Source: JBDRED01 sp043820025 [NCBI: Elusimicrobiota bacterium]
GTDB taxonomy: Bacteria; RUG730; JBDRED01
Direction: 5' to 3'
Assembly: GCA_043820025.1 (NCBI GenBank)
Contig: JBDRED010000040.1
Coordinates: 1-38,098 of the forward strand
Length of the DNA stretch: 38,098 nt
Positions within the stretch are counted from its first letter, which is position 1, and each line of letters begins with the position of its first letter. The notes beneath the pieces were generated by a model that was given only the letters and a program-made list of their open reading frames with translations, was not told where the DNA came from and ran no database searches. The translations under genes were made by a program, and so were the position numbers. Below are positions 1,691-31,738 of the stretch, piece by piece.

Positions 1691-1733
1691 AGGGATAGCA
1701 TATATGCCTATATATATGTATGGGGACATTAAA

Positions 1734-11157: not shown

Positions 11158-11217
11158 GAAAATTTAGACTACAGATTCTATAAAATATATTAAACAGCCT
11201 ACTTCTTCCCTTTGCCG

Positions 11218-11239
11218 GACGGGGTTTGTAACCCCGTTC
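11218..11239. repeat. Hairpin repeat, copy A (GACGGGGTTTGTAACCCC core)
   Basis: CGGGGTT and AACCCCG pair perfectly around a TGT loop (11220-11236). A diverged copy lies at 11636-11657 in the same orientation, 17 of 22 bases identical, so the two bracket the small membrane-protein gene. This copy could also act as a T-less hairpin terminator for the minus-strand run ending at 11248. Confidence 0.6.
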
Positions 11240-11247
11240 ATTTCATA

Positions 11248-11496
11248 TTACTTCTTCTCTATTTTTGACAATCCTACAATGACTAAAATATACGCGATTG
11301 TGCGAATACTTATTAAAAACCCTGTCAAATCTCTTTGCATACCTGCGAACGTAATAATGTGCGATACACAGAATATTGTAAACGCCAGCCCAATGAGCAT
11401 AAACGCTTTCATTCCGCTCTTACTCGCTCCCTTAAACCCTAATACGCTGATAATCGCGCATAAAATAATGTTCACTACATCAATCGGATCACCCAT
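11248..11496 (-). CDS. Small three-helix membrane protein, function unknown
   Basis: The protein is 82 residues from the ATG at 11496. That start is preferred over a TTG 15 bases upstream because GGAGGT (11504-11509 region) sits about 7 bases before it. It has three predicted transmembrane helices (about residues 5-22, 30-50 and 58-77) and a short basic tail ending KIEKK. I recognise no family. It is the last gene of a long minus-strand run, 189 bases after the GT2 gene, and is bracketed by two copies of a hairpin repeat. A flippase role like GtcA is conceivable from context, but GtcA proteins are longer with four helices, so this is not claimed. Confidence 0.7.
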   Translation of the reverse strand: MGDPIDVVNIILCAIISVLGFKGASKSGMKAFMLIGLAFTIFCVSHIITFAGMQRDLTGFLISIRTIAYILVIVGLSKIEKK

Positions 11497-11574
11497 AACA
11501 AATACCTCCAAAAATATAATAAATTTTATAATGCAGATTTATTATGCCATGTCAAATTTACATAAATTTAACAA

Positions 11575-11606
11575 GAATTCAGAAGCCGGAATTCAGGATT
11601 CAGAAT
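11575..11606. repeat. Heptanucleotide tandem repeat (GAATTCA type)
   Basis: Units of seven bases in a row: GAATTCA, GAAGCCG, GAATTCA, GGATTCA and a partial GAAT. The period is exact, with substitutions in the second and fourth units. It lies in the spacer between the small membrane gene and the GT2 gene. A second heptamer array, with a different unit, is at 35582-35602. Confidence 0.55.
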
Positions 11607-11635
11607 ATTATAATAATTTTCCAATACCTTTTATT

Positions 11636-11657
11636 GACGGGATTTGTAATTCCATCC
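11636..11657. repeat. Hairpin repeat, copy B (diverged copy of 11218-11239)
   Basis: It has the same orientation as copy A, with five transitions. One stem pair is changed on both sides (G-C to A-T), and another becomes G-T, so most of the stem is preserved. It sits between the end of the GT2 gene and the small membrane-protein gene. Confidence 0.5.
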
Positions 11658-11685
11658 GCATGTTTATTTCTTTTGATAATAACAA

Positions 11686-12627
11686 TTACTCGTACTTCTT
11701 TCTTATTAAAAATATAGGCCTTTGTTTTACCTCCAGATAACTCTTTGCTATATACTCGCCTATTATTCCAATAAACAAGCTCTGTAATCCGCCAAATATC
11801 ATAACAGTAAGAGCAATAAACGCCCATCCGGGAACATTAACGTTTCTAAACAGCTTAACATATAAAATAAAGGACATACCAAAAACAGACACGAAAAATG
11901 ACACAAACCCAAACAATGCAATAATTCTTATAGGAGTATTGCTGAGCGATGTAATACCATCCAAAGCAAATCCAAATAACGCGTGAATCTTAAACTTTGT
12001 CTTCCCGGCCTTTCTTTTTCTTCTGTCATAATACACAAGCGCATACTTTGACTCCAGATTAAGTATCATACCGCGCAAATATCTATTTCGTTCAGGAAAC
12101 TTTTTTAGGTCTTCAAGCGCGCTGCTGCTTAGTAATCTAAAATCTCCATGATTATATACTGACGGAGCGCCCATCTTATCCAAAAACCAATAATATAAAT
12201 GCGCAGTCCACCTCTTTAAAAAGAAATCAGCTTTTCTTTTTTTGCGCACGCCAAGCACCATATCGTAACCCTCATAGTATTTAACGATCATATCCGCAAT
12301 ACTTGCCGGATCGTCCTGCAGATCAGCATCAATACTTACAACCATCTCCTTAGTTGCGTTAAACAATCCTGCTGTTATAGATCCTTGATACCCGAAATTT
12401 CTTCTCAAATCTAAAATCACAATATTTTTATCTTCGTTTTTTAGTTCAATCATCTTTTCAAGCGTATCATCGGTTGACCCGTTATTTACCATTACTATCT
12501 CATATCCATCCATAATTTTACCCTGCCATTTATCTAACAGCGTCTTAATTTCAGCATAGGTGTTTTTAATAACTTCAGATTCATTATGACAAGGTATTAC
12601 AATTGACAGCGAAGATAACTTATTCAT
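11686..12627 (-). CDS. GT2 family polyprenyl-phosphate-type glycosyltransferase (GtrB/CsbB/DPM1-like)
   Basis: This is a 313-residue membrane glycosyltransferase. The family moves a hexose from a nucleotide sugar to undecaprenyl phosphate on the cytoplasmic face. An N-terminal GT-A domain opens with LSIVIPCHNE. It carries NNGSTDDT (48-55) and the metal-binding DADLQDDP (100-107). Two C-terminal transmembrane helices (about 230-255 and 268-292) complete the standard GtrB/CsbB architecture, and the length is typical. It overlaps the rfbH stop by four bases (ATGA) and has AGGAG ahead of its ATG inside rfbH, so the two are translationally coupled. With two YfhO-type proteins upstream in the same run, a lipid-carrier glycosylation route is a reasonable inference. 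The sugar is unknown. Confidence 0.92.
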   Translation of the reverse strand: MNKLSSLSIVIPCHNESEVIKNTYAEIKTLLDKWQGKIMDGYEIVMVNNGSTDDTLEKMIELKNEDKNIVILDLRRNFGYQGSITAGLFNATKEMVVSIDADLQDDPASIADMIVKYYEGYDMVLGVRKKRKADFFLKRWTAHLYYWFLDKMGAPSVYNHGDFRLLSSSALEDLKKFPERNRYLRGMILNLESKYALVYYDRRKRKAGKTKFKIHALFGFALDGITSLSNTPIRIIALFGFVSFFVSVFGMSFILYVKLFRNVNVPGWAFIALTVMIFGGLQSLFIGIIGEYIAKSYLEVKQRPIFLIRKKYE

Positions 12628-13946
12628 TTAACAAACTCCTTTAAAACTTCAATTATATAGTCCAGCGCTTCTTCTTTCATTCCGGGATACACGCCGAACC
12701 AAAAACTATCATACATAATCTTATCTGTATTTTTAAGCCCGCCCGCGATTCTGTAATCTTTGCCTTCAATTAGATCGTCAAAAACCGGCTGTTTTACAAG
12801 ATTCCCTCCGAAAAGATTGCGCGTCTGAATATTATGTTTCTCTAAATATTCAACAACATCATTGCGCGTAAACGAAAGATTATCCTGTAATGTAATTAGG
12901 AATCCAAACCAAGACGGCTCAGCGTTTTTAGCCGGTTCAGGCAATATAAAATATTTTTTTAAATCCTTTAGGCCGTCGTATATTTTCTCATGATTCTCTC
13001 TGCGCTTTTTTATAAATCCTTCGAGTTTATCTATCTGCGCGCATCCAATAGCAGCCTGCATATCTGTTGTTTTTAGATTAAATCCAAAATGGCTATAAAC
13101 ATATTTATGGTCATAACCAAAAGGAAGTTTTCCAAACTGCCCGGAAAATCTATTCTTACATGTATTATCAACGCCGCTCTCACACCAGCAGTCCCTGCCC
13201 CAATCGCGCATAGAAAGCATTATTTTTTTTAACATTGGGTCGTTTGTATATACAGCTCCGCCCTCTCCCATAGTCATATGATGCGGCGGATAAAAACTGC
13301 TTGTCCCAATATCGCCCCATGTTCCTGTATACCTGCCGTCATATTTACTGCCTAGCGCGTCACAATTATCTTCAATAAGCCACAAATTGTGCTTGGAACA
13401 AAAAGCTTTTACCTCGCGAATATCAAATGGATTGCCTAATGTATGCGCTGCCATGACCGCTTTTGTCTTTTTTGAGAGAGCAGATTCTAAATGTTTGGGA
13501 TCAATATTACCATTAACGTCAACATCAACAAAAACCGGCACAGCGCCATATTGAATAATTGGCGCAATAGTAGTAGGGAATCCGCAGGCTATGGTTATTA
13601 CTTCGTCTCCTCGATTTACTCTTCTTTCATCTAAAAGGTGCGATGTCAAAGCCATAAAGGCTATGAGATTAGCAGATGATCCGGAGTTTACAAGCAGGCA
13701 ATATTTAATTCCAAGAAACTCAGCAAGCTTTGTTTCAAATTCCTTTGAATATCTCCCATAAGTCAGCCAAAACTCAAGACTGCTGTCAACAAGATTAACC
13801 AGCTCTTTATCGTCAAACACCCTGCCTGCGTAATTAACCCGCGACTTTCTTTTTATAAACTCCCGCTTTGTCTCAGCCTCAAGAGCCTTATAATATTCCT
13901 TTGTCATATCAAGTATATTTTTTCTTATTTCATCTTTCTTACTCAC
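12624..13946 (-). CDS. rfbH: CDP-4-keto-6-deoxy-D-glucose 3-dehydrase (E1), PMP and [2Fe-2S] dependent
   Basis: The protein has 440 residues, the normal length for RfbH/DdhC/AscC. It removes the C3 hydroxyl of CDP-4-keto-6-deoxyglucose, the defining step to 3,6-dideoxyhexoses. The fold is that of the DegT/DnrJ/EryC1 aminotransferases, but the catalytic Lys is replaced by His (H222 in PHHMTMGEGG), as in characterised E1. The iron-sulfur motif known for E1 (C-x57-C-x-C-x7-C) is exact: C195, C253, C255 and C263. The start is GTG at 13946, with GGGAG upstream. The four-base overlap with the GT2 gene suggests coupling. The partner reductase E3 (ddhD/ascD/rfbI) is not in the window. Confidence 0.96.
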   Translation of the reverse strand: MSKKDEIRKNILDMTKEYYKALEAETKREFIKRKSRVNYAGRVFDDKELVNLVDSSLEFWLTYGRYSKEFETKLAEFLGIKYCLLVNSGSSANLIAFMALTSHLLDERRVNRGDEVITIACGFPTTIAPIIQYGAVPVFVDVDVNGNIDPKHLESALSKKTKAVMAAHTLGNPFDIREVKAFCSKHNLWLIEDNCDALGSKYDGRYTGTWGDIGTSSFYPPHHMTMGEGGAVYTNDPMLKKIMLSMRDWGRDCWCESGVDNTCKNRFSGQFGKLPFGYDHKYVYSHFGFNLKTTDMQAAIGCAQIDKLEGFIKKRRENHEKIYDGLKDLKKYFILPEPAKNAEPSWFGFLITLQDNLSFTRNDVVEYLEKHNIQTRNLFGGNLVKQPVFDDLIEGKDYRIAGGLKNTDKIMYDSFWFGVYPGMKEEALDYIIEVLKEFVK

Positions 13947-13990
13947 CTTTCTCTCCCATCATTTTTTTTTATTCAGATATTATTTCTATT

Positions 13991-14055
13991 TGTCATTCCC
14001 GGTTTGACCGGCAATCCGAATTTTTCTGTCATTCCGGGCTTGACCCGGAATCTTC
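13991..14055. repeat. Two tandem copies of a GTCATTCC...GGAATC palindromic repeat
   Basis: Copy 1 begins at 13991 and copy 2 at 14027, 36 bases apart. Each starts TGTCATTCC and can fold; in copy 2, ATTCCGGG pairs with CCCGGAAT around a five-base loop (14031-14051). They lie in the 126-base spacer between rfbH and the reductase gene and may act as a weak attenuator there. They belong to the same broad family as the repeats at 14973-15038 and 28811-28830. Confidence 0.65.
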
Positions 14056-14072
14056 GATAATTAATACACTTT

Positions 14073-14954
14073 CTATAACTTCATATATTCTATTGTTTTC
14101 ATTAGGCCATCTTTTATGCTTGTTTCCGGCGCCCATCCGGTAAGAGCTTTTAAAGCTTTTGTGTCTGCGCGCGAGTCCATTATCTCTCCGTCTCTATAAG
14201 TCAAAGCTCCAAAATTTATTTTACTCTTACTTTTTGTGATTTTTAAAACTATCTCAATAAATTCCTTTATTGAATTGCTGACGCCTCTGCCAATCCCAAA
14301 TTCAATATAATTCTCTTTAATCTTTGAAATATTATCTAAAACTAATTTAAAAGCAAGAGCCGCATCCTCGATAAATAAAAAATCTCTTTTTTGCGAGCCC
14401 GGCGTCATATCAATGCTTAATTCATTTGAAAGTATTCTATGAATTATATTTACAACAAATTTATTCTTCCTGTCCAGCGGGCCATAAATATGCTCCATTC
14501 TCATATTAAGTATTTGAGTTTTTCCCGCATATTTTTTTAATTTTTCAAGAAGATGTTTTTTTGAGAGAGAATAATCTAATAAATGCGTATATTTAATGTC
14601 GTCTCTATTAAAAAATGTATCTGTATTAATAAAACATTTTAATCCTTTTCTTATCCCTGATTCTAAAAGAGCAATAGGCAGTTCAATATTTACTTTATTA
14701 ATCTCATCTGCGCTCTTCCCATTTCCATATTCAACAGCTGTGTGCGCTATCACATCAATTTTATTCTCATCAAATATTTTATTAATAGCGGTCTTATCAA
14801 TATCGTAAAATTTTACTTTATTAATTATTTTTTCTATACGCCAAGTATCAGAAAAACTCCGTTTAAGAATTATTACATTATAATCATTTATCAAAGCTTT
14901 TAGTACATAACTTCCTAAAAACCCTGTTGCGCCGGTTAATAAAATATTTTTCAC
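14073..14954 (-). CDS. NAD(P)-dependent reductase resembling CDP-abequose/CDP-paratose synthase
   Basis: This 293-residue extended SDR is predicted to reduce the 4-keto group of CDP-3,6-dideoxy-4-ketoglucose, the last step to a CDP-3,6-dideoxyhexose. The nucleotide motif GATGFLG (8-14) and YSLSK (Tyr128/Lys132) are present. Segments INTDTFF, NMRMEHIYGP, KRDFLFIEDAA and GALTYRDGEIM match my memory of Salmonella RfbJ (abequose synthase), including Thr where many SDRs have Ser. The start is GTG at 14954, with AGGAG six bases upstream. It sits between rfbG and rfbH, the expected place. Abequose and paratose synthases are related and differ in the stereochemistry they give at C4, so I do not assign the product or a gene symbol. 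Confidence 0.85.
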   Translation of the reverse strand: MKNILLTGATGFLGSYVLKALINDYNVIILKRSFSDTWRIEKIINKVKFYDIDKTAINKIFDENKIDVIAHTAVEYGNGKSADEINKVNIELPIALLESGIRKGLKCFINTDTFFNRDDIKYTHLLDYSLSKKHLLEKLKKYAGKTQILNMRMEHIYGPLDRKNKFVVNIIHRILSNELSIDMTPGSQKRDFLFIEDAALAFKLVLDNISKIKENYIEFGIGRGVSNSIKEFIEIVLKITKSKSKINFGALTYRDGEIMDSRADTKALKALTGWAPETSIKDGLMKTIEYMKL

Positions 14955-14972
14955 TTAAACTCCTGCCGCTTA

Positions 14973-15038
14973 GTCATTCTGAGCATAAATTCTCTGCCAT
15001 TCCCGCGTCTTTGTGTTATTCCCGCGCAGGAGGGATCT
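14973..15038. repeat. Degenerate copies of the GTCATTCC/CCATTCCCGCG-type repeat
   Basis: Three short, decayed segments (GTCATTCTGAG, CCATTCCCGCG, TTATTCCCGCGCAGGAGGGATC) follow one another in the 89-base spacer between rfbG and the reductase gene. They resemble the better-kept copies at 13991-14055. The last can pair CCCGCGC with parts of its own 3' half. Confidence 0.4.
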
Positions 15039-15043
15039 ACACA

Positions 15044-16123
15044 TTACTTTATATAATCCATTATATCATCAACACTATTAATTCTATTCTCTTTATAATA
15101 ATTCTTATACCATACTACAGTTTTCTTAATTGTTTTTTCTATTCCCCACACAGGCTTCCAACCAAGCATTGTTTTTGCTTTATTATTATCAAGACTCAAA
15201 AATCCTGCTTCATGCGGATTATTATTATCACTCTTGATTTCATAACTAATATCATTCCATTCTTTATTCACAAGCTTTACAATATTTTCTACTGTCATTA
15301 CTTCGTTATTGTCAGGCCCAAAATTCCAACCGGAAGCAAACTCCTTTTTCCCTTCCAAAAGTTTCTGCCCAAGCATTAAATATCCTGATAAAGGTTCTAA
15401 TACATACTGCCAGGGCCTTGTTGCCTGAGAATTTCTTATAATAACTTTTTTCCCTCTACTGACAGCGCGCATTATATCCGGTATCAAACGATCTTCCGCC
15501 CAATCGCCTCCGCCTATAACATTACCTGCGCGGACACTTGCCAGAAGAGTGTTATGCGCTTTGCCATATTCATTAATATTAAAAAATGAATTTCTATAAC
15601 TTGCAGTCACAAGCTCTGCGCATCCTTTTGACGCGCTGTATGGGTCATACCCGCCCATTGGATCGCCTTCCTTATACGGCCGCTTATCCTCTTTATTCTC
15701 ATAACACTTATCGCTTGTAATATTAACAATAGCTTTTATATTTTTCACTTTGCGGCATACCTCAAAAACATTTGCAGTTCCTATAACATTTGTTCCGAAT
15801 GTTTCAAGAGGCTCTTTGTAAGAATATCTGACCAGCGGCTGAGCCGCCATATGAAAAACAATATCAGGCTTTGCGTTCAGCAAAGCATTATTTAATTTAT
15901 CTTTATCTCTGATATCGCCTATTATGCCGTTAATATTTAATTTAAGAAGTTCAAAATGATTTGGGGTAGTCGGAGGTTCTAAAGAATATCCTGTAACATC
16001 AGCGCCCATTAAAGTCAGCCACAACGCAATCCACGATCCCTTAAAACCTGTATGACCTGTTAGAAATACGGTTTTATCCTTATAAATTCCATTAAATAAT
16101 TTTTCTTTTACCAGATCTTCCAT
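15044..16123 (-). CDS. rfbG: CDP-glucose 4,6-dehydratase
   Basis: The protein has 359 residues, as expected for RfbG/DdhB. It converts CDP-D-glucose to CDP-4-keto-6-deoxy-D-glucose with bound NAD. The Rossmann motif with the family-specific form TGHTGFKGSW lies near residues 22-31. Other hallmarks are FHMAAQPLVRYSY, NITSDKCYENKE (Thr/Asp/Lys of the active site), PYSASKGCAELV (Tyr-x-x-x-Lys) and RAGNVIGGGDW. The ATG at 16123 is preceded by GAGG and overlaps the rfbF stop by 16 bases, so the two are tightly coupled. The product feeds RfbH, encoded two genes on. Confidence 0.97.
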   Translation of the reverse strand: MEDLVKEKLFNGIYKDKTVFLTGHTGFKGSWIALWLTLMGADVTGYSLEPPTTPNHFELLKLNINGIIGDIRDKDKLNNALLNAKPDIVFHMAAQPLVRYSYKEPLETFGTNVIGTANVFEVCRKVKNIKAIVNITSDKCYENKEDKRPYKEGDPMGGYDPYSASKGCAELVTASYRNSFFNINEYGKAHNTLLASVRAGNVIGGGDWAEDRLIPDIMRAVSRGKKVIIRNSQATRPWQYVLEPLSGYLMLGQKLLEGKKEFASGWNFGPDNNEVMTVENIVKLVNKEWNDISYEIKSDNNNPHEAGFLSLDNNKAKTMLGWKPVWGIEKTIKKTVVWYKNYYKENRINSVDDIMDYIK

Positions 16124-16881
16124 TTAGCCTCGCCTTTTTCCCACAAATTATTTAAATATATCTTATCGCGCAAAGTGTCCATACACTGCCAAAATCCATT
16201 GTGTTTATATGTCACCAGCTGGCCGTCCTTTGCCAAATTTTCTAATGGAGCGCGTTCAAAAACAGAAGCGTCTCCGTCTTTAATATAGTCAAGCACCTTT
16301 GGCTCACAAACAAAAAATCCGCCATTTATCCACGATGATTCGCCTTCTGTTTTTTCCATAAATCTAGACACGCGATTATCCTCTTCAATATGCAGAGCGC
16401 CAAACCTGCCCTCAGGCCTTACAGCTGTGATTGTTGCAAGTTTACCGCGCGATTTGTGAAACTTAACAAGCTCATTAATATCAACATTCGCCACTCCATC
16501 TCCATATGTTAGAAGAAATGGCTCGTTACCAACATAATCCTTTACCCTTTTTATTCTGCCGCCTGTCATAGTTCCCTGTCCTGTATCAACCAATGTGACC
16601 TTCCAAGGCTCGCTCGAATTTTTAATTGTTTCCAGCTTATTACGCGCTAAATCTATTGTTACATCGCTTTGATGCAGAAAATAATTAGCAAAATATTCCT
16701 TAATAAAATATCCCTTATAACCGAGCATGATCACGAAATCATTAAAGCCGTAACTTGAATATAATTTCATAATATGCCACAAAACAGGCTTTCCGCCAAT
16801 CTCAACCATAGGCTTTGGCTTAATTTCTGTTTCTTCTCCAAGACGAGAACCTGTCCCGCCCGCCAAAATAAATACTTTCAT
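16108..16881 (-). CDS. rfbF: Glucose-1-phosphate cytidylyltransferase
   Basis: The protein has 257 residues from the ATG at 16881, the usual RfbF/DdhA length. A longer open frame to 16959 exists, but its extra 26 residues are not part of the family, and AGGAG precedes the 16881 start. It makes CDP-glucose from CTP and glucose-1-phosphate, the first committed step of the CDP-dideoxysugar path. Motifs: MKVFILAGGTGSRLGEE (nucleotide loop), KPKPMVEIGGKPVLWHIM, a YGDGVANVD metal-binding segment, and INGGFFVCEP. It is followed with a 16-base overlap by rfbG, and preceded by the LamG-type membrane protein gene 50 bases upstream. Confidence 0.97.
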   Translation of the reverse strand: MKVFILAGGTGSRLGEETEIKPKPMVEIGGKPVLWHIMKLYSSYGFNDFVIMLGYKGYFIKEYFANYFLHQSDVTIDLARNKLETIKNSSEPWKVTLVDTGQGTMTGGRIKRVKDYVGNEPFLLTYGDGVANVDINELVKFHKSRGKLATITAVRPEGRFGALHIEEDNRVSRFMEKTEGESSWINGGFFVCEPKVLDYIKDGDASVFERAPLENLAKDGQLVTYKHNGFWQCMDTLRDKIYLNNLWEKGEAKWKIW

Positions 16882-16931
16882 ATATATACTCCTATTTAAC
16901 AAAAAGATTCCTTGTAAATTTATTATCTTTG

Positions 16932-17855
16932 CTAAATACTTCTTCTTATTTGATTCCAATTTTTAATTATATCTGAATCATTTAAAGCAATACCCTGGAT
17001 TAAAACTTCTCTAATAATACCGTTAAAAGGCCTGGTTCCAACAAACCAATTTCCAATAGATATTTTCTCTCCGGAATCCTGAATAGGCAAATTCGCTTTT
17101 GTATAGGATACGTTTTTCCCGTTTAAATACACATTTATGCCGTTTGTGTTTACAACTATTGCTATATAATTCCACTTATCGCTCTTTAAAGCAAACATTT
17201 TGCTGGTATTCCATCTCTTCCCATCGCCATAAAAAAAGTTAAAATTCAAACCCTGAGTATTATCCTTTTCAACTGTGAATCCTTTAAAGTCTTTGTGTGT
17301 TGATATTATATTAGAATAATTTACCTGGTCCTTAAATGGTTTTACAATAAGCTCTATTGTAAAATCCGCGTCTAAATTAATAGGGTCATTAAAGACTTTT
17401 TCACTCTTTGGATTTGCATTATAAAATAGATGCATTACCGGCTCAGATTTTCCAATCAGCGCTTCTCTCTGAATAGTATCCGAAGAAGAATTAAAAATTA
17501 GATTATTGTTTGGGAAAAAAAGGGAAATTGTTGTCAAAATAACAACAATCAAAAAATATATTCCCCAATCTTTCATAATACCCTGAATCATTAGAGAAAA
17601 CTCTGTTTTTAAATTTTTAAATAACATTATTATTGAAACAATCACTGTCAAAGCCATAGCAAACTGTAAAGCGATAGATATTTTTCCAAAGAACAAATAA
17701 CCTATCAGCATTAATACTCCAAACCCGCAGACAGATAAAACGAAACTTACTGCCGCGCCTTTATTTTTTAACATTCCCTTATTTAACGCTCTAGCGCAAA
17801 GCACTATTATTAAACAAAGCGCAGAAAAAAGACATACTAACTTAATAACTATCAT
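16932..17855 (-). CDS. Membrane-anchored LamG/concanavalin-like protein
   Basis: The protein is 307 residues from the ATG at 17855. That start overlaps the upstream YfhO stop as ATGA and has GGGGGAA about eight bases ahead; a GTG two codons earlier is a weaker option. Four hydrophobic helices fill residues 1-120. The rest (about 145-300) is a LamG/concanavalin-like jelly roll: DADFTIELIVKPF, a WNYIAIVVN segment, INVYLNGKNV, ISIGNWFVGTRPFNGIIREVLI, then IKNWNQIRR. These are typical strands of LamG_3 carbohydrate-binding domains. The last helix places the domain on the outer face. Coupling to the YfhO gene suggests it binds or presents the glycan that YfhO handles. No catalytic residues are recognised. 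Confidence 0.85.
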   Translation of the reverse strand: MIVIKLVCLFSALCLIIVLCARALNKGMLKNKGAAVSFVLSVCGFGVLMLIGYLFFGKISIALQFAMALTVIVSIIMLFKNLKTEFSLMIQGIMKDWGIYFLIVVILTTISLFFPNNNLIFNSSSDTIQREALIGKSEPVMHLFYNANPKSEKVFNDPINLDADFTIELIVKPFKDQVNYSNIISTHKDFKGFTVEKDNTQGLNFNFFYGDGKRWNTSKMFALKSDKWNYIAIVVNTNGINVYLNGKNVSYTKANLPIQDSGEKISIGNWFVGTRPFNGIIREVLIQGIALNDSDIIKNWNQIRRSI

Positions 17856-20521
17856 AACCACTTCCCCCTTTTAAACAATTTTGTAATTGTTTTTTTATTG
17901 TTTTGTTTGAACTTTATTACCATTATAACTATTATGCAGCTAAAAATAATAAAATACACTAAATAAAATATATTAAATAAACTTAACAGCGTATTTTTAT
18001 ATTTTATTTTTACTTCATGCGCGCCCGGAGGAACAACAAATACCATCTGTTCCTTTTCAAGCTTATAAGAACGCTCCTTATTATCTATATACAGCCGTAA
18101 ATTTCTGCTCGGAAAAAGCAAGTAATATACGGTCAATTTATTATCGCTCTTTGTATTAAATGATATTTTATTCGCGTAATTCGCGTAAAAATCAGTCACT
18201 GCCATTTTATCAGAAAGATTTGGGATCTTTATTATTCCATTATTATATGAATTTTCCGGATATAAATCCACATCCCAATATCTGCTGATTCTAAGTAATG
18301 TTTTATTGCCGTTTAAATCTCTGATCCAGCCGTCAGGCACTACCTGAACAGGTGAAAAAGATTTGTCAAAATCTATTAATTCTATTGGTATATATTTAAT
18401 ATTTTTATTCTCATCATATCCGCGGATATATAAATTTTTTATGCTGACAGGATTATCATTATTTTTAAATATCTCCACATCTATATATTCTGTGTCTGTA
18501 TCTGTGATAAAATCAAACTGCGTAACAGTAGAATTATTACCGCTATTAACAACATATTCCCTGCCTTGTATTTTTATTGTGAGCAGAGTATTATTTTGCG
18601 AAGAAGCTTCCAACGCAAACATATACGCGCCTTTAGGAAACTGTTTTGTCATTGGTTTTAGTTTATAAATACGGCTCCCGTCATGCAATCCGTAACTTAA
18701 TGTATCATCAATTGCCAAATTAATTTGTTCTTTATGTTTATTCCGCGCTTCTGCGCCGCATATAACAAAATCTGCGCCTGTCCTCCACAGCCAATCATAA
18801 TCAATTTGTTCATAGTATGGAAATTTAGCTCTAAACCGCAAATCAGAAGCCAGATGGAGTTCATAACCCAAATAATTAGACAGCTTAATATTTTTTTCCA
18901 CAAACCATGGATAATTTCTAGGCACATAAACATTCCTTTCATTTGGCATACAATTTATATATTTTGGCAGATCCTTTGCGCAATTTTTCTTAATAAATTC
19001 CGCCATTCCCTTTTCATCATCTTCATGAAGGAAGATATAGTCCTTAGCATAGATAAAGTTCGCGTCTGTGAAGTCGTAAAAATATGTAGTATTCAATATG
19101 AAAATAAATAATATTGCAGTATATATAATTACCTTCTTTTTATACGCCGAGTATACAAAAAGAAAGATAAGAAGAAATAACAGTTCAATAAGTATATTAT
19201 TCCAACGAAACATATGCCATCTGGGCGCAGGGCCTATGTAAAGAAAAAGGCCTATGAGCGAGAATAATCCAAAAGCCGCTATAAATATCCGCCGGACAAT
19301 TGTTTGATCCTCTTTCTCTACGGCAGAAATGAAATATATGGTTACTATGATAGAGAAAAAAACATTTGTAATTAGAAGATGCCTGAAATACAGGTGCATA
19401 TTTCCTAAAAAAGGAACAATCGAGTAAAATATATCGCTTAAGCCGATAGAGCTTCCAAATGATATTAGAAAAGGCATGACTGCTAATGGAGAGCTGATAA
19501 GAATTAATTTTTTATGAGCCTCTTCAATCCTGCCGTTCTTGCTATTGGACAGGATGTAAAGCAATATCATACTCAGAGGAATTAATCCTAAATACAACGT
19601 AGGCATCTCTGATTCGTTAAATATATGGATTCCATAGGATAAAGATGTTATTAAATCCGCCATCTTTAAAGACACCTCGTGCGCGATTGACTTTAAATTA
19701 ACAGGAACTGTTGATGCAATTTTATTATATTTTAAAATAGCCAGATAGAACGGCGCTGTAACAAAAGAGGCTATTGCAGGAGGAATAAAAAGGCTGATGA
19801 TAGCTTTTTTTGACGACTTCCAATCCCCTTTATTCATCATATATACACAATAAAGCACGCTAAAAATAATTACATAAACAATTGCTGAAACAGAGAGCGG
19901 AATATACCCTGATAAAAATACCGGTAAATACATACCTGATAATAAAAATAATTTAAATCTATCTTTGACTGATAAAGAAACTAATGCAAAGTACAATAAG
20001 ACAGGGATTAATGCTACAATATAAAAGAACGGTGGAAAAAGCTTTGCTATAATAGTCTTTGAGGAATATACAAGAAATACCGAGAAAAACAGAGCGGATA
20101 TTCTATCAAATCCAAAAAACCTTTTAGCGAGTAATTGGCTGAAAAACACAGCGAATACAACATGTACTGCTCCTAAGAATATCATGATAGAAAAAAACGC
20201 TTCTAAATTTGAGAGTTTGACAATAGAAAACAACAAATGATGCAGAGGATAAGCGGTAATAATATTCGGCCTTAAGAAAAATTCTGAAGATCCATTTGCA
20301 GTAAGAAAATCTACGCCTGAGAATATACCTCTTTTAAATAAGTTGTAACTATGTATAAACTGAGGCCCGTACAAACAAAGCTCATCTATAAAAAAATAAT
20401 ACAGCTTTTTATTACCGCGCCCCAGAATTCTTAAGTATGGGGAATAAAATATAAAGGATGATACTAATGAGGCAATTAATTCAAAATTATACTTTTTAAT
20501 TATGCTTAGGATTTTTTTCAT
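17852..20521 (-). CDS. YfhO-type GT-C membrane protein, downstream copy
   Basis: This is an 889-residue polytopic protein with roughly a dozen transmembrane helices in residues 10-480, a large extracytoplasmic beta-rich region (about 490-840) and a last helix near 845-875. The layout is that of YfhO (bacterial membrane protein) family members, which belong to the GT-C glycosyltransferases; B. subtilis YfhO is implicated in sugar transfer to lipoteichoic acid. An acidic residue in the first extracellular loop (FFIDELCLYGPQ) is the candidate catalytic base, as in GT-C folds. The extracellular part includes VEIFKNNDNPVSI, VVPDGWIRDL and FVVPPGAHEVKIKYK. It is a clear tandem paralogue of the upstream gene, four bases away. 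The acceptor and sugar are unknown. Confidence 0.85.
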   Translation of the reverse strand: MKKILSIIKKYNFELIASLVSSFIFYSPYLRILGRGNKKLYYFFIDELCLYGPQFIHSYNLFKRGIFSGVDFLTANGSSEFFLRPNIITAYPLHHLLFSIVKLSNLEAFFSIMIFLGAVHVVFAVFFSQLLAKRFFGFDRISALFFSVFLVYSSKTIIAKLFPPFFYIVALIPVLLYFALVSLSVKDRFKLFLLSGMYLPVFLSGYIPLSVSAIVYVIIFSVLYCVYMMNKGDWKSSKKAIISLFIPPAIASFVTAPFYLAILKYNKIASTVPVNLKSIAHEVSLKMADLITSLSYGIHIFNESEMPTLYLGLIPLSMILLYILSNSKNGRIEEAHKKLILISSPLAVMPFLISFGSSIGLSDIFYSIVPFLGNMHLYFRHLLITNVFFSIIVTIYFISAVEKEDQTIVRRIFIAAFGLFSLIGLFLYIGPAPRWHMFRWNNILIELLFLLIFLFVYSAYKKKVIIYTAILFIFILNTTYFYDFTDANFIYAKDYIFLHEDDEKGMAEFIKKNCAKDLPKYINCMPNERNVYVPRNYPWFVEKNIKLSNYLGYELHLASDLRFRAKFPYYEQIDYDWLWRTGADFVICGAEARNKHKEQINLAIDDTLSYGLHDGSRIYKLKPMTKQFPKGAYMFALEASSQNNTLLTIKIQGREYVVNSGNNSTVTQFDFITDTDTEYIDVEIFKNNDNPVSIKNLYIRGYDENKNIKYIPIELIDFDKSFSPVQVVPDGWIRDLNGNKTLLRISRYWDVDLYPENSYNNGIIKIPNLSDKMAVTDFYANYANKISFNTKSDNKLTVYYLLFPSRNLRLYIDNKERSYKLEKEQMVFVVPPGAHEVKIKYKNTLLSLFNIFYLVYFIIFSCIIVIMVIKFKQNNKKTITKLFKRGKWL

Positions 20522-20525
20522 ATTT

Positions 20526-23171
20526 TCATCTCTGTTTTTTATAAATATATCTTGTTATTATGATATATAAAGCCAGCAAAATATATGTTAATAAATATAA
20601 TCCGAAAATAACATTGAAGATGCTGAGCTTATAATTTCTATAAACTATCTTTACCTTGTGTTTCCCTGCAGGAATTTCAAATACTGCAAGCCTATTTTCA
20701 AGATTATACTTAATACGTTTGCCATCAACATAAACTTTCATAATACTTGCCGGATACAATTGATACAGCGCAGTTAAAGATTTATTGTTATCCGTATCAA
20801 ATTTCACCTTGTTCGAATAATTCGTATAGAAATTCTTAACTGAATTTGTATTTTCCTCGCCTAAAATCTTAATTATTCCATTATCAAAATTCTTTTCTTC
20901 AATAGGCCCTATGGACGGAACTTTATAAACGCTTATTTTGCCTGAATTACCTGTTAAATACCGTCTCCAACCGTCAGGTAATGACTCAATATTCGAATAA
21001 TTAGAATCAAAGTCTATTTTTTTAATAGGAATCCATTTGTCCGCATACTCGCCCAAGAAAACATTCTTAATCATTATATTTTTAATGCCGTTGGACTGTA
21101 AATTAATATCAAATGTATCGCTGTCATTTTCAATTGTAACGCTCAAATCCACAACTTTAACTGCCCTTCCAATACTAATATCATAGTTTTTACCGCCAAT
21201 AATTAATCTGATTATACCATCCCGGTCTGCGGAACATGTAAATCTAAAGAAATAACCGCCTTTTGGAAAGTTATTTACAATTCCTTTTTTTATCGTCTTA
21301 TACATTCTATCGCCGTTCCTAAACGAAAACTTTATTTTTTCATTTATATTCCCGGCTAACGCCTGTTTATATTTATTTTCAGCCTCATTATTGATAATAA
21401 TAAAATCACAGCCTGTAAGCATTGCCCATTCAAAATTTATGTTCCCATAAAATGGACATATATTTCTGTACCCCCGCTCGGAAGCCAAATGCAGTTCATA
21501 ACCATAATAATTTGAAAGTTTAAATCTCTTTTCTATTAACCATGGAAAATTCCTCGGAACATATGAATGAACCTCATTAACGCAATTAAGATATTTAGGA
21601 AGAACCTTGCCGCTGTTTGTTTTAATAAATTCCAGCATACCGGAAACTTCATCATCATGGAGAAAGATAAAATCCTTCTTATTGGCCTCATTTGAACCAA
21701 ATGTTTTATAAGCAAAGGTAGTGTTTAATATAAATGTAATGCCGATCAAAACGTATAACACAAATTTCTTATCCAATTTAATGTACGCGGCTAGAAAGAC
21801 TGCAAACATTACGAGTTCAAAAATCACATCATTTAAATCTATATACAACAATGGCCGCGCTAACCCCATATAATTTAAATAAATTCTTACAATAAAAAAT
21901 GCCGTAAGGGCTAATGATACAATTAGGCTGATTTTTGCAAATTTAATTAATCTTAAACTCAAAAAATAATTAATAATAATAACCATAAAAATTGAGAAAA
22001 AGAGATTTGTGATAAGCAGATACCTGGAGTATACATGCATATCTCCCAGCCCGGGCGCTAATGTATAAAACATATCGCTAACGCCAATATATAAACCAAA
22101 AGAAATGAGTAATGCGCTTCCGAATATGCCCAGGCATATATAAAGCATACGCTTATCTATTTCCTGTATTAAATGTTTCTTAGCAGTATTAAAAGCAGAG
22201 GCAACTAAGATGACTACAGGTATTAACCCGACATACAAAGTCCCCATTCCATTATTAGCAATGCATCTTAAGCCGTATGAAAGCGCGGTAAAAATATCTG
22301 ACGGCGTCAAAGAAAGATGCCGGACAACATTTCTTAAATCAGCCACAACAGTTGAAGCAATCTTATTATATGACATTATTGCCGTATAAAACGGGAATAT
22401 GACGATAAATGCAATCGCTATCGGAACAAAAAGCATGAATAAACCATTCAAAGATTTCTTAATAGACCCGTTATTTTCAATAAAAATATGATAAAGCGCC
22501 GCAAAAATAACCGAGACTAGAATTCCTGCAGCAGCCAGAGGTATATAGCCGCTTAAAAAACCTAATATATAAACTCCTGATAGAAAAAACAGCGATACTT
22601 TACTCTGATTTTTTAAAGAGATTAATCCTGTATACACAAGTAAAGGAATTAATAATACTATATACATAAATGGCGGGAATGGTTTGGCAAAAAGAGTTTT
22701 TGAAGAAAACACAAAAAACACCGCCAGGAAAAGCGCCTGTATTTTATCAAATTTTAAATATTTCACAGCTATCAACTGCGAAAAAAACATAGCAGGCACC
22801 ATATGTAAAAACTCAACAATAATTATTAATGAGAAAAATGATTCCAAACTACAAATATTTGAGAACAAAAAGGATAAATAATGCAAAGGATAGGCTGTAA
22901 TCAGGTTGGGCCTTAAAAAAAACTGAGACGAACCATTCGCTGTTAAAAAATCAACTCCTGAAAAAATAAAATGCTTAAACGCATTATAACTATGCATAGT
23001 TTGAGGAACATATAATGAAAGTTCGTCTAGAAAAAAATAGTAAAGCCGTTCATTCCCTCTGCCAAATACCTTTAAATACGGAGACAAAAAAAGAAACGGC
23101 AGTATTACTGACGTGATTATTTGATAAGCATTTTTTTGTATTACTTTCAGAAATTCGCGACTGGTTTTCAT
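20526..23171 (-). CDS. YfhO-type GT-C membrane protein, upstream copy
   Basis: This is an 881-residue paralogue of the next gene with the same plan: many transmembrane helices, then an extracytoplasmic beta-rich region (about 490-845) and a final helix. Matching landmarks include GRGNERLYYFFLDELSLY with the candidate acidic residue, GVDFLTANGSSQFFLRPN, SLPDGWRRYL, FYTNYSNKVKFD and FEIPAGKHKVKIVYR. The shared HDDE and YVPRNFPW segments show the duplication covers the full length. The ATG at 23171 has GAGGT five bases upstream. It lies 60 bases after the VTC gene and four before the other copy. The two probably transfer different sugars or use different acceptors; the sequence alone does not tell. 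Confidence 0.85.
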   Translation of the reverse strand: MKTSREFLKVIQKNAYQIITSVILPFLFLSPYLKVFGRGNERLYYFFLDELSLYVPQTMHSYNAFKHFIFSGVDFLTANGSSQFFLRPNLITAYPLHYLSFLFSNICSLESFFSLIIIVEFLHMVPAMFFSQLIAVKYLKFDKIQALFLAVFFVFSSKTLFAKPFPPFMYIVLLIPLLVYTGLISLKNQSKVSLFFLSGVYILGFLSGYIPLAAAGILVSVIFAALYHIFIENNGSIKKSLNGLFMLFVPIAIAFIVIFPFYTAIMSYNKIASTVVADLRNVVRHLSLTPSDIFTALSYGLRCIANNGMGTLYVGLIPVVILVASAFNTAKKHLIQEIDKRMLYICLGIFGSALLISFGLYIGVSDMFYTLAPGLGDMHVYSRYLLITNLFFSIFMVIIINYFLSLRLIKFAKISLIVSLALTAFFIVRIYLNYMGLARPLLYIDLNDVIFELVMFAVFLAAYIKLDKKFVLYVLIGITFILNTTFAYKTFGSNEANKKDFIFLHDDEVSGMLEFIKTNSGKVLPKYLNCVNEVHSYVPRNFPWLIEKRFKLSNYYGYELHLASERGYRNICPFYGNINFEWAMLTGCDFIIINNEAENKYKQALAGNINEKIKFSFRNGDRMYKTIKKGIVNNFPKGGYFFRFTCSADRDGIIRLIIGGKNYDISIGRAVKVVDLSVTIENDSDTFDINLQSNGIKNIMIKNVFLGEYADKWIPIKKIDFDSNYSNIESLPDGWRRYLTGNSGKISVYKVPSIGPIEEKNFDNGIIKILGEENTNSVKNFYTNYSNKVKFDTDNNKSLTALYQLYPASIMKVYVDGKRIKYNLENRLAVFEIPAGKHKVKIVYRNYKLSIFNVIFGLYLLTYILLALYIIITRYIYKKQR

Positions 23172-23231
23172 ATCAACCTCATATATTATTAAAAAAAGAT
23201 TTTTAACTATTACCCCGGTATCTGCCTTAAG

Positions 23232-23927
23232 TTAAATACCAAGAACCGATTGAACTCCCATTACATACTTAGACACCTTTGAAGGAGAAACCTCTAAATT
23301 TTCCATTGCCTTTTCCGCAAGATGTAAATCATCTGCCGCGAACTTAAACTCTAAAATTACTATTTCAGGACTTGCGCCTCTATATTTTTTATTCGCATAA
23401 CTATAAAATCTTTGGTCATAAAAATAAATATTTCTATCTAAAGTAATCCGTATTTTATTATCACACGACACAAAATAATCTCTTTCATAACTATTGATAA
23501 GCACAGGCGCATCGCTTAAATGGAATCTCTGTTTTAATTCAGGAGATGCATTCGACTTTAATTCATTAATAATATCGTTAAAATTTAAATCGCAAATATT
23601 TTTATTAAGCCTTATATTTTCCTGCGACTTCCAGCCTAATTTATTTCGCTTTATCTTTAGTTCGAGCACAGTATCTTTTGTATTCATATTAGAGCCATAC
23701 CATCTTAATCTGAATTTTGTCCTGGATGACTTCCCCGTTAAATTCTCCCAGTATGATTCCAATGCGTGATTATCAAAATAAATATTATTAACCACACGAG
23801 AAGGATACGCTTTTCGAAACATCATATCATGCAATAAAATCCATTGTTTTAATCTATTATACATTCCAACATTTGTTACGAATTTTATCTCGCATCTGGC
23901 TTTTTGCAATATTTCATCCGGAATCAT
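23232..23927 (-). CDS. VTC-domain (polyphosphate polymerase-like) protein
   Basis: This is a 231-residue stand-alone VTC domain of the triphosphate tunnel metalloenzyme fold. The yeast Vtc4 domain makes polyphosphate from ATP; the function of bacterial single-domain versions is mostly not established. Tunnel residues are all in place: R11, E13, K15 (RCEIK), IYFDN (49-53), K71/R73/R75 (KFRLR), E89/K91 (ELK), YERDY (147-151), R160/T162/D164, E193/K195 (ILEFK) and SKY (219-221). It should therefore be able to bind a polyphosphate chain and a divalent metal. The ATG overlaps the CotH stop (ATGA), with GAAGGA upstream. No SPX domain or membrane helices are present, so it is cytoplasmic and probably partners the CotH and DUF4956 proteins. 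Confidence 0.92.
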   Translation of the reverse strand: MIPDEILQKARCEIKFVTNVGMYNRLKQWILLHDMMFRKAYPSRVVNNIYFDNHALESYWENLTGKSSRTKFRLRWYGSNMNTKDTVLELKIKRNKLGWKSQENIRLNKNICDLNFNDIINELKSNASPELKQRFHLSDAPVLINSYERDYFVSCDNKIRITLDRNIYFYDQRFYSYANKKYRGASPEIVILEFKFAADDLHLAEKAMENLEVSPSKVSKYVMGVQSVLGI

Positions 23928-26689: not shown

Positions 26690-26707
26690 ATAATTAGTTA
26701 TACTCTC

Positions 26708-27634
26708 CTATTTCTTAACTCCCTTAGTATAAAACCATTTATCTGTAAACGGCACAGGCAGAGTTTTAACAATAACATTGTAATTGCCATTATTAATATC
26801 CAGTACTGAATAAGACAATAACGGCGATCCCGCTGTTGTAAGCTGGGCAGGGCATGTGCCAAAGGAGTTTCTAAAATATGGAATATTATCCAATTCAAAA
26901 TAAGGAGCCGGCCCGAATTGGCTCCAGTCACCGCTAAAAACCGCATTAATTTTATTTTTAATCAACGGCCTAACCTTATCATTCCATACCTTTGAGTGCC
27001 GCATGACATCCTGCGCATAACTCTCCGGGGTATCATAGGCGTATTTTTCATATTTGCCATAGGACATGCCGTTAATATCCGGATGATGATGCATAAAAGT
27101 AAATCTTAATTTATGGTTTACTGCTGTATCTGCGGGAATCGCAGATAAGAGTTTTAAACTTTCCTTATCCAATCCATAACCTTGAATAGTTCTTGTCCAG
27201 TCATAGGCATCATTTCTGCCTTTAACTGTATTTAATAGATATAACTCAACATTGTTCAAATCAACTTTCTTAGAAGTATACCCAACATTTTTATACCAAT
27301 TTTCTTCGGCATTCTCTCCTCCTTCTCTTTGCAGGTCATGATTGCCGGGCGCAAAATAACAAGGCGCTTTTATTTTTGATAAAACATTATCATTCAAGTC
27401 TGCCCAATCTTTCATTGTTCCTGCAGATGTCATATCGCCCATAAATATTACAGCATCCGGCTCCATAGCATTTATTTCATCCACAAAAATCTTTCTGACT
27501 TCAGGGAAATTTTGAATTGAATAGAAATGGCCTACTGCCACAATTCTTGTATCAACATCCTTCCCGTATAATCCTGCCGACAAAATACTCATTAATAGCG
27601 CAAAAAAAACGATTATCCTTTTAAAATTATTCAT
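26708..27634 (-). CDS. Secreted calcineurin-like metallophosphoesterase with degraded metal motifs
   Basis: The protein has 308 residues, with a signal peptide (cleavage near residue 24, before KDVD). The five family motifs appear in order but two are altered. Motif I has Val34 where Asp is expected before His36 (VAVGHF). Motif II GD (66-67), motif III GNHD (97-100) and motif IV MHHHPD (about 181-186) are intact. Motif V is GDWS (235-238) instead of GHxH. A two-metal phosphatase needs the motif I Asp and the motif V His residues, so activity may be lost, reduced to one metal, or changed. It lies 18 bases before the CotH gene and 57 after DUF4956. The ATG has AGGAG upstream. Confidence 0.85.
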   Translation of the reverse strand: MNNFKRIIVFFALLMSILSAGLYGKDVDTRIVAVGHFYSIQNFPEVRKIFVDEINAMEPDAVIFMGDMTSAGTMKDWADLNDNVLSKIKAPCYFAPGNHDLQREGGENAEENWYKNVGYTSKKVDLNNVELYLLNTVKGRNDAYDWTRTIQGYGLDKESLKLLSAIPADTAVNHKLRFTFMHHHPDINGMSYGKYEKYAYDTPESYAQDVMRHSKVWNDKVRPLIKNKINAVFSGDWSQFGPAPYFELDNIPYFRNSFGTCPAQLTTAGSPLLSYSVLDINNGNYNVIVKTLPVPFTDKWFYTKGVKK

Positions 27635-27691
27635 CCAATGCTCCTAAAATATTTCTTATTTGGGATTTATTATATGGCTTTACTTAATCTT

Positions 27692-28366
27692 TTATACACC
27701 GGGTATTCTGCTTTGATCAATAAATGAAACTTGCAAATGAGGATATTTATCTTTTAAATGTTCGACCAGCCTAAATATTTTGTGAGAATCATCAACATTT
27801 ATCATATACATAATATGCGTTGATGTATCTGTATGATCAAGCCTTTTTAGATCGCATGTTTCGCTGAAATCAGCGATAATCCCGCTAATCTCTTCAGCAG
27901 AGACCTGTTTTTCCTTTCTATCCCAATGAACAGAAACATATAAATCCTTACTATCAGACTTATTAAACTTCCATTTAAATACTGCGACTACTATTAAGAT
28001 AAATATAGCAGCTGACGAAGTAAGAATCGTCTGATTAGCGCCCAGGCCCAGGCCTATAGCTATTGCCATAAACAAATATATTAATTCTTCAGGCTCTTTT
28101 ATTGGCGTTCTAAAACGCACAATTGACAGAGCGCCGACTAATCCGAGTGATAATGCAAGCGATGATTTAACCACTGATATAATCAAACATACAATTAAGA
28201 TTAGAAAAGGCAATATTCTACTTAACTCTTTTTTCCCTGACAATGTAGATGAAAATCTCTCAAAATGGTATTTTAACATCAAAGAAAGAATAAGCCCGAC
28301 AAATAAATTTAAGAAGATTGTTGAAAGAGCTAATGGATCTTCTGCAAAACTAAAAAGATTATTCAT
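27692..28366 (-). CDS. DUF4956 membrane protein
   Basis: The protein has 224 residues, with four to five helices in residues 12-131 and a cytoplasmic ferredoxin-like domain (about 140-224). The family signature LSIVRFRTPIKEPEEL (about 80-95) followed by a Gly-rich helix (IAIGLGLGA) is clear. From memory, DUF4956 genes are often next to VTC-domain and CotH genes in other bacteria. Here all three lie within 5 kb in one direction, which supports a shared pathway. The biochemical role is unknown; the SIVRFRTP segment resembles that of MgtC-like membrane proteins. The ATG has AAAGGAG at good spacing, and this is the first gene of the 13-gene run. Confidence 0.92.
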   Translation of the reverse strand: MNNLFSFAEDPLALSTIFLNLFVGLILSLMLKYHFERFSSTLSGKKELSRILPFLILIVCLIISVVKSSLALSLGLVGALSIVRFRTPIKEPEELIYLFMAIAIGLGLGANQTILTSSAAIFILIVVAVFKWKFNKSDSKDLYVSVHWDRKEKQVSAEEISGIIADFSETCDLKRLDHTDTSTHIMYMINVDDSHKIFRLVEHLKDKYPHLQVSFIDQSRIPGV

Positions 28367-31726: not shown

Positions 31727-31738
31727 TTTCTACTCCTC

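What the first reader, a model, noticed from the sequence alone, without database searches (positions are those of the whole stretch)
11248..28366. Thirteen-gene surface-modification island: DUF4956, CotH, VTC, two YfhO, LamG, CDP-dideoxysugar and GT2 genes
The genes run one way, with four overlaps (three of 4 bases and one of 16) and mostly short spacers. The set combines nucleotide-sugar synthesis, a lipid-carrier-type GT2, two GT-C-type proteins, a glycan-binding-type domain, a secreted kinase-like protein and a polyphosphate-polymerase-like domain. I know of no described system with this full set. Inference: a pathway that makes a 3,6-dideoxyhexose-containing glycan and phosphorylates or polyphosphorylates a surface partner.
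Basis: partly seen in the sequence, partly recalled or inferred. Interest (0 to 1): 0.8.

Follow-up and report, generated by a model that had tools for sequence, protein, structure and literature searches.

The report
Envelope sugar-and-phosphate modification gene island
A run of thirteen bacterial genes joins a known kind of gene set for putting an unusual sugar on the cell surface to a known but unexplained set that probably handles phosphate or polyphosphate at the cell surface; each half is familiar, the join is uncommon.

Summary
The supposedly undescribed core, CotH + VTC + DUF4956, is in print as an accessory set of Gram-positive Pel clusters. VTC and DUF4956 lie within 100 bp in 24 of 27 loci examined here. 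The sugar half works like known GT2 + GT-C transmembrane glycosylation, fed by a CDP-3,6-dideoxyhexose route whose first three enzymes pass curated cut-offs. New here: the CotH has histidine where CotH kinases have their catalytic aspartate, and a C-terminal beta-helix. PMT_2 genes lie near VTC more often than chance (3 of 17 genomes, 0.2 expected). But RfbH and YfhO are never within 10 kb of VTC on a contig in 20 sampled genomes, so this exact set was not found again. Most likely an envelope-decoration operon; the phosphate chemistry is inferred. New variant of a known kind. Source organism unknown.

The parts
27692..28366 (-). DUF4956 membrane protein, first gene of the island; helices plus ACT-like C-terminal domain
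   Evidence: Pfam 61 bits; AlphaFold model mean pLDDT 73.5 with five helices and a ferredoxin/ACT-like C-terminus; R84 and R86 invariant in 26 of 26
26708..27634 (-). metallophosphoesterase with N-terminal signal-like segment
   Evidence: Pfam Metallophos 39.6 bits; hydrophobic segment 4-22; a relative follows CotH-VTC in L050
23924..26689 (-). CotH-like protein with one N-terminal hydrophobic segment and C-terminal right-handed beta-helix; His346 at the position of the catalytic Asp
   Evidence: Pfam CotH 27.3 and Beta_helix 28.8 bits; topology; profile alignment and 16 comparison sequences
23232..23927 (-). VTC-domain protein, polyphosphate polymerase-like, no hydrophobic segment
   Evidence: Pfam VTC 111.9 bits; Vtc4 by profile E 7.7e-19; R73, R75, K91, R149, R160, E193, K195, K220 and others in 27 of 27
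20526..23171 (-). YfhO-like polytopic membrane protein, copy b (GT-C candidate)
   Evidence: hhalign 98.4% in a one-pair comparison with a YfhO profile; 43% identical to copy a
17852..20521 (-). YfhO-like polytopic membrane protein, copy a (GT-C candidate)
   Evidence: as copy b
16932..17861 (-). N-terminal membrane segments plus C-terminal LamG/ConA-like domain
   Evidence: Pfam Laminin_G_3 62.4 bits, residues 162-298; hydrophobic segments within residues 4-122; start more likely ATG at 17855
16108..16959 (-). RfbF, glucose-1-phosphate cytidylyltransferase (likely start ATG at 16881)
   Evidence: TIGR02623 410.6 bits, cut-off 300.25
15044..16123 (-). RfbG, CDP-glucose 4,6-dehydratase
   Evidence: TIGR02622 498.3 bits, cut-off 278.45
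14073..14954 (-). NAD-dependent sugar epimerase/reductase, probable 4-keto reductase (inferred)
   Evidence: Pfam Epimerase 96.8 bits; no NCBIfam cut-off reached
12624..13946 (-). RfbH, CDP-4-keto-6-deoxy-D-glucose-3-dehydrase
   Evidence: NF011936 720.6 bits, cut-off 423; 3bcx and 3bb8 at 514 and 510 bits; motif at residue 217
11686..12627 (-). GT2 polyprenyl-phosphate sugar transferase (GtrB/PgfS-like)
   Evidence: Pfam 89.4 bits; sll0501 211.8 bits; PgfS model E 1e-64, 218.7 bits, below its cut-off of 500
11248..11511 (-). 87-aa small membrane protein, weakly DUF5985-like
   Evidence: 23 bits, cut-off 27.3; hydrophobic segments

Best explanation
An operon that decorates one envelope acceptor in two ways. 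Sugar half: RfbF, RfbG, RfbH and the SDR make a CDP-3,6-dideoxyhexose in the cytosol. The GT2 loads it on polyprenyl phosphate, and the two YfhO-like proteins transfer it outside the membrane to a glycan or protein; LamG and the beta-helix of CotH are extracytoplasmic binding parts. Phosphate half: VTC on the cytosolic face makes polyphosphate, DUF4956 is its membrane partner, and the membrane-anchored CotH-like protein and the metallophosphoesterase act outside, adding and trimming phosphate on the same acceptor. Shown: gene content, order, families, conserved residues, predicted hydrophobic segments, and recurrence of the phosphate half near GT2/GT-C-type genes in some lineages. Inferred: shared transcript, shared acceptor, sidedness, all chemistry, DUF4956 as exit path.
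For: Genes are colinear and partly overlapping. Three pathway enzymes pass equivalog cut-offs. GT2 is closest to sll0501 and ArnC among solved structures. YfhO likeness 98.4% by hhalign. VTC keeps the conserved charged residues and matches Vtc4. VTC-DUF4956 gap at most 100 bp in 24 of 27 loci: 23 plus L049, whose VTC was seen only with the Pfam model. CotH within 10 kb of VTC in 13 of 17 genomes, 0.18 expected, plus G037 by direct search. G037: CotH-VTC-phosphoesterase-MdoB-like-PMT on one 6.8-kb contig. PMT_2 within 10 kb of VTC in 3 of 17, 0.20 expected. GT2 beside the triad with DUF6056 (L001), with PMT_2 (L053, L055) and with GtrII (L010). In print: mutants of two of three trio genes lower Pel-dependent aggregation (PMC12345266, passages); the S. 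mutans pgf operon (GT2, two paralogous membrane proteins, epimerase) modifies surface proteins (PMC5856776, passages).
Against: RfbH over cut-off (4 of 20 genomes) and YfhO (10 of 20) never lie within 10 kb of a known VTC on one contig. A relative of window CotH was found in 1 of 198 genomes and of window YfhO in 1 of 198, the same genome but another contig and only a C-terminal segment. In ten other triad loci the one to three neighbours scanned were of unrelated kinds. Of the three PMT_2 cases one (G196) is below the Pfam cut-off, and G193 and G196 look related. In the window VTC and DUF4956 are 3.8 kb apart. G037 has no DUF4956 hit, though its contigs are short. His346 at the catalytic Asp makes kinase activity doubtful. 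No CDP-6-deoxy-glucoseen reductase and no GtrA-type flippase were seen among the 21 window proteins scanned. Promoter and terminator scans are at chance. The GT-C fold was not verified: model pLDDT 34.6; plain hmmsearch with the YfhO profile found only a C-terminal segment.
Confidence: 0.45

Rival explanations
1. Two independent modules side by side: a glycosylation operon (RfbF/G/H, SDR, GT2, YfhO pair, LamG) and a CotH/VTC/DUF4956/phosphoesterase operon that became neighbours without a shared role.
For: RfbH and YfhO are never near VTC in the 20 genomes sampled; the neighbours scanned in ten other triad loci are of unrelated kinds.
Against: The boundary between the modules is only 60 bp (VTC 23232 to YfhO 23171). 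PMT_2 genes lie near VTC beyond chance, and in G037 a PMT gene lies on the same contig as the same CotH branch.
Confidence: 0.3
2. CotH, VTC and DUF4956 regulate rather than modify: VTC/DUF4956 sense phosphate or nucleotides through the ACT-like domain and control polymer synthesis, with CotH as a non-catalytic (pseudokinase) scaffold.
For: ACT/PII-like C-terminal domain of DUF4956; His at the catalytic Asp; a regulatory role was suggested in print for the Pel-linked CotH (PMC7112168, passages).
Against: VTC keeps its conserved charged residues. The 16 other CotH sequences compared keep the catalytic Asp. CotH here has its only hydrophobic segment near the N-terminus, so its bulk is probably outside.
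Confidence: 0.2
3. A teichoic-acid or glycerophosphate-like surface polymer pathway in which the phosphoesterase and CotH process phosphodiester groups and VTC is a side store.
For: G037 has an MdoB/LtaS-like sulfatase-fold protein next after the phosphoesterase.
Against: No such gene is in the window, and the MdoB model is matched far below its cut-off (42.1 vs 574).
Confidence: 0.05

Closest known systems
CotH / poly-phosphate polymerase / DUF4956 accessory genes of Gram-positive pel clusters (PMC7112168; SIR_1592-1594 in PMC12345266)
   Same: The same three families together; secreted CotH, polyphosphate polymerase domain, four-TM protein with ACT domain (that SIR_1592 is the DUF4956 member is my inference from its layout); linked to surface polysaccharide
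   Different: No pel-type family among the window proteins scanned; different order; an added metallophosphoesterase; CotH with beta-helix and His at the catalytic Asp; linked to GT2/YfhO/rfb instead
pgf operon of Streptococcus mutans (PMC5856776)
   Same: GT2 (PgfS is the best NCBIfam model for the window GT2), two paralogous large membrane proteins, a sugar epimerase
   Different: A Gram-positive operon without CDP-dideoxysugar or phosphate genes; the window GT2 is below the PgfS cut-off
Multi-component transmembrane glycosylation systems, CsbB-GtcA-YfhO type (PMC8035078)
   Same: GT2 plus YfhO-like GT-C candidate
   Different: No GtrA/GtcA flippase seen; YfhO likeness only by profile comparison
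rfbFGH CDP-3,6-dideoxyhexose genes of O-antigen clusters (setting recalled)
   Same: RfbF, RfbG, RfbH above equivalog cut-offs
   Different: No E3 reductase seen in the window; the SDR is not assignable
Yeast VTC complex (PMC9911596)
   Same: Polymerase domain matched by profile; a membrane partner with conserved basic residues
   Different: No SPX or fused TM domain; DUF4956 is not known to be related to Vtc1; polyphosphate synthesis untested

Membership tests
CotH kinase family (PF08757) | Pfam match above gathering score | tested here: met
   27.3 vs 23.8 bits, residues 158-427
CotH kinase family (PF08757) | catalytic Asp (B. subtilis D228; change abolishes activity, PMC7821199 passages) | tested here: not met
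   H346 aligns with D351 of A7, invariant in its ten sequences (hhalign 64.9%, E 6e-5); A7 aligned to B. cereus CotH 5jd9; Asp in 16 of 16 sequences, which include those ten. His also in G037, but as the second residue of a protein cut by the contig end. Equivalence to D228 is by alignment and spacing
CotH kinase family (PF08757) | second Asp (B. subtilis D251; metal-binding role recalled) | tested here: met
   D370 aligned with A7 D374
VTC polyphosphate polymerase | VTC domain with conserved charged residues | tested here: met
   111.9 bits; R73, R75, E89, K91, K100, R149, R160, D164, E193, K195, S219, K220 in 27 of 27; R73/R75 align with the RLRWYG of Vtc4. That the others line the tunnel is recalled
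VTC polyphosphate polymerase | polyphosphate synthesis from ATP | not testable with these tools
   no assay
DUF4956 (PF16316) | Pfam match above gathering score | tested here: met
   61 vs 30.6 bits
YfhO family (PF09586) | Pfam match above gathering score | tested here: not met
   no hit at E up to 1 for either copy
YfhO family (PF09586) | distant profile similarity over the membrane region | tested here: met
   hhalign 98.4%, 501 columns, one-pair comparison with a profile of ten ORFs (eight used by hhalign) that have PF09586 hits; plain hmmsearch found only a C-terminal segment
GT-C glycosyltransferase | GT-C fold | tested here: inconclusive
   model of the pair failed, mean pLDDT 34.6; no fold search made with it
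GT2 + flippase + GT-C transmembrane glycosylation | polyprenyl-phosphate GT2 | tested here: met
   sll0501 211.8 bits, ArnC-type 122 bits; DAD at residue 100
GT2 + flippase + GT-C transmembrane glycosylation | GtrA-type flippase in the cluster | tested here: not met
   no such Pfam hit among the island proteins; it could lie elsewhere in the genome
CDP-3,6-dideoxyhexose pathway | RfbF, RfbG, RfbH equivalogs | tested here: met
CDP-3,6-dideoxyhexose pathway | E3 reductase (DdhD/RfbI) | tested here: inconclusive
   none among the 21 window proteins scanned; the rest of the genome is not held
Pel-linked triad | pel genes alongside | tested here: not met
   no Pel-named family among the 21 window proteins scanned with Pfam

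The most novel reading that the evidence does not exclude
VTC plus DUF4956 is a bacterial two-part polyphosphate synthase and export path, and exported polyphosphate is the phosphate source for CotH-like enzymes outside the membrane, where there is no ATP. In the branch seen here and in G037 the catalytic Asp is replaced by His, fitting a phosphotransferase that uses polyphosphate rather than ATP, on a surface glycan or protein made by the neighbouring GT2/GT-C genes, with the metallophosphoesterase as its eraser.
Probability: 0.13. Interest if true: 0.85.

Novelty: new variant of a known kind. Interest (0 to 1): 0.48.

Why it matters
CotH, VTC and DUF4956 travel together in Bacillota and Spirochaetota-type genomes and in bifidobacteria (PMC7112168), and in the papers opened here nobody has shown what the trio does. 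This window and G037 add a phosphoesterase, a CotH branch without the catalytic Asp, and glycosyltransferase partners. That makes the question concrete: is polyphosphate made and sent out to modify the surface glycan or protein? If so, polyphosphate would be an extracytoplasmic phosphate donor in bacteria. If not, the trio may be a regulatory unit and this CotH branch a pseudokinase.

Tried and rejected
Search of the window's own genome: none held. Viral contigs with VTC, one YfhO copy, A1 and A2: no relatives. Plasmids with window CotH, window YfhO and L050 CotH: no match. Window CotH in the class of G037: 1 of 3, G037 itself; window YfhO in 60 relatives of G037: 1 of 60, G037 itself. Structure of the YfhO pair: too poor to use. 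Fold search with the DUF4956 model listed matches of its C-terminal ACT/ferredoxin-like domain; no membrane-domain match stood out, which is not evidence of a new fold. Rfam and tRNA scans were empty. Considered and rejected: CotH as an ordinary CotH kinase (catalytic Asp missing); the triad as undescribed; 11217-11239 as the island's terminator, because no T-run follows the hairpin on the - strand. The source organism was not identified.

Rows dropped: L007 (close to L006), L040 (the same place as L005) and L057 (as L011) before the counts. G151 (VTC below cut-off) and the three Bacillota genomes were left out of the 17-genome test. Limits: in that test contigs are short and genomes related (G193 and G196 have near-identical DUF4956), so its P values are optimistic; G196's PMT_2 match is below the Pfam cut-off. 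Among the 27 loci, L058 was chosen by a DUF4956 hit, several are close relatives (L043, L044, L047, L048), and L003's gap is distorted by stop-to-stop ORFs.
Full report
What is there. The window carries thirteen - strand genes between 11248 and 28366. In order of transcription they are DUF4956, metallophosphoesterase, CotH-like, VTC, two YfhO-like proteins, a LamG protein, RfbF, RfbG, an SDR, RfbH, a GT2 and a small membrane protein. The shared transcript is an inference: a promoter-like pair lies just upstream of DUF4956, but promoter-like and terminator-like counts are not above shuffled sequence, and the hairpin at 11217-11239 has no T-run on the island's strand.

The sugar half. RfbF, RfbG and RfbH pass their curated cut-offs. 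RfbH is closest to the solved CDP-4-keto-6-deoxyglucose-3-dehydrases 3bcx and 3bb8, 514 and 510 bits, and carries the stretch YPPHHMTMGEGG; that a His replaces the usual PLP lysine there in this family is recalled. A DdhD/RfbI reductase was not seen among the 21 window proteins scanned, so the 3,6-dideoxyhexose is likely, not proven. The GT2 is closest to sll0501, with ArnC next. The two large membrane proteins are 43% identical paralogs. Pfam finds no YfhO in them. A profile from ten ORFs with PF09586 hits in other genomes matches them at 98.4% over 501 columns by hhalign, while plain hmmsearch shows only a C-terminal segment. An AlphaFold model of the pair failed (pLDDT 34.6), so the GT-C fold is not shown. 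This half works like the GT2 + GT-C transmembrane glycosylation systems reviewed in PMC8035078 (passages read) and resembles the pgf operon of S. mutans, a GT2 with two paralogous membrane proteins and an epimerase that modifies surface proteins (PMC5856776, passages read). No GtrA-type flippase was seen.

The phosphate half. CotH, VTC and DUF4956 are a described set: PMC7112168 reports CotH, a poly-phosphate polymerase and DUF4956 beside streptococcal, clostridial and bifidobacterial pel genes (passages read). PMC12345266 reports reduced aggregation in mutants of SIR_1592 (four-TM protein with ACT domain, which I take for the DUF4956 member) and SIR_1594 (CotH) of S. intermedius, and says its analyses failed to find the three genes in this order outside the Pel locus (passages read). 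The trio, or VTC with DUF4956, is seen here without pel-type families among the window proteins scanned and among 40 chosen neighbour proteins of other loci; pel genes were not searched for as such. VTC and DUF4956 lie within 100 bp on one strand in 23 of 27 loci by single-sequence search, 24 with L049, whose VTC was seen only with the Pfam model. The exceptions are L041 (2.1 kb), L008 (VTC at a contig end) and L050 (short contig). VTC is over cut-off in 17 of 198 genomes sampled from the phylum of a Treponema genome. CotH lies within 10 kb of VTC in 13 of these 17, 0.18 expected, and in G037 by direct search; G085 has CotH far away, G170 and G178 have none. In the 14 control genomes VTC and DUF4956 ring in the same three; CotH rings in two of those three and also in B. 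subtilis, which has neither.

What is different here. First, the CotH-like protein. Its Pfam score is above cut-off, but profile-profile alignment puts His346 on the Asp that is invariant in ten other CotH proteins (hhalign probability 64.9%, E 6e-5). That Asp aligns with B. cereus CotH (5jd9) and is present in 16 of 16 comparison sequences, which include those ten. By alignment and spacing it corresponds to B. subtilis D228, whose change abolishes activity (PMC7821199, passages read). The second Asp is kept (D370). The only other protein of this branch found, in G037, also has His there, but as the second residue of a protein cut by the contig end. Two sequences are few. Second, the metallophosphoesterase: G037 has CotH-VTC-phosphoesterase in a row, then an MdoB/LtaS-like protein and a PMT-type gene. 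G037 shows no DUF4956 hit; its contigs are short. Third, the link with glycosylation genes: PMT_2 proteins lie within 10 kb of VTC in 3 of 17 genomes, 0.20 expected, one of the three below the Pfam cut-off and two probably of one lineage. GT2 plus DUF6056 flank the trio on a Pseudobutyrivibrio plasmid, GT2 plus GtrII in a Butyrivibrio locus. Against this, RfbH over cut-off (4 of 20 genomes) and YfhO (10 of 20) are never within 10 kb of a known VTC on one contig, and in ten other loci the one to three neighbours scanned are of unrelated kinds. The exact combination in the window was not found again.

How it probably works. VTC has no hydrophobic segment, CotH has one near its N-terminus, the phosphoesterase has a signal-like segment, and DUF4956 has several. 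In a usable model (pLDDT 73.5) DUF4956 has five helices and an ACT-like C-terminal domain, with two arginines invariant in 26 of 26 sequences at the end of the third helix. In yeast, the VTC polymerase feeds a membrane channel lined by basic residues (PMC9911596, passages read). By analogy, VTC would make polyphosphate in the cytosol and DUF4956 would be its membrane partner, perhaps its exit; the CotH-like protein and phosphoesterase outside would add and trim phosphate on the acceptor that the GT2/YfhO half glycosylates. Everything after the word "would" is inference. A regulatory reading, with the ACT-like domain as sensor and CotH as pseudokinase, is the main functional rival; chance neighbourhood of two modules is the main structural one.

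Novelty. Searches for the trio and for CotH with polyphosphate gave the papers cited. Of 47 papers that hold both CotH and polyphosphate, 20 were listed and one was opened, in passages; it does not propose export of polyphosphate to CotH in the passages seen. Most subscription papers are not held, so this is no proof of absence. The parts are known and the join is uncommon, so I file it as a new variant of a known kind. The source organism remains unknown: the genome is not held, and the nearest system found is only 27% identical in CotH.

Noticed in passing
window 1704-11093 (+): A 3129-aa protein, convergent with the island, with a signal-like N-terminus, ankyrin repeats around 1856-2004 and an alpha/beta-hydrolase region around 2160-2280; NCBIfam hits are weak and far below cut-off. 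Its style reminded me of giant proteins of Omnitrophota, which is recalled and untested.
   Followed up: partly
window 28925-33370 (-): Two genes upstream of the island, a 933-aa protein and a 543-aa protein that looks like an outer-membrane beta-barrel (by eye), separated from DUF4956 by about 560 bases with terminator-like hairpins. They may be a separate operon of a two-membrane bacterium.
   Followed up: no
Both contig ends cut genes, so the rest of the cluster is unseen.
   Followed up: partly
L043 11204-12568: The CotH gene downstream of VTC-DUF4956 in G090 is split by a stop codon; the other CotH copy there is intact.
   Followed up: no
L058 14045-15853: A Na/Pi-cotransporter with a PhoU domain lies about 4 kb downstream of a CotH-VTC-DUF4956 set in the genome of the Roseburia locus L006, a hint that the trio may be tied to phosphate supply.
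   Followed up: no
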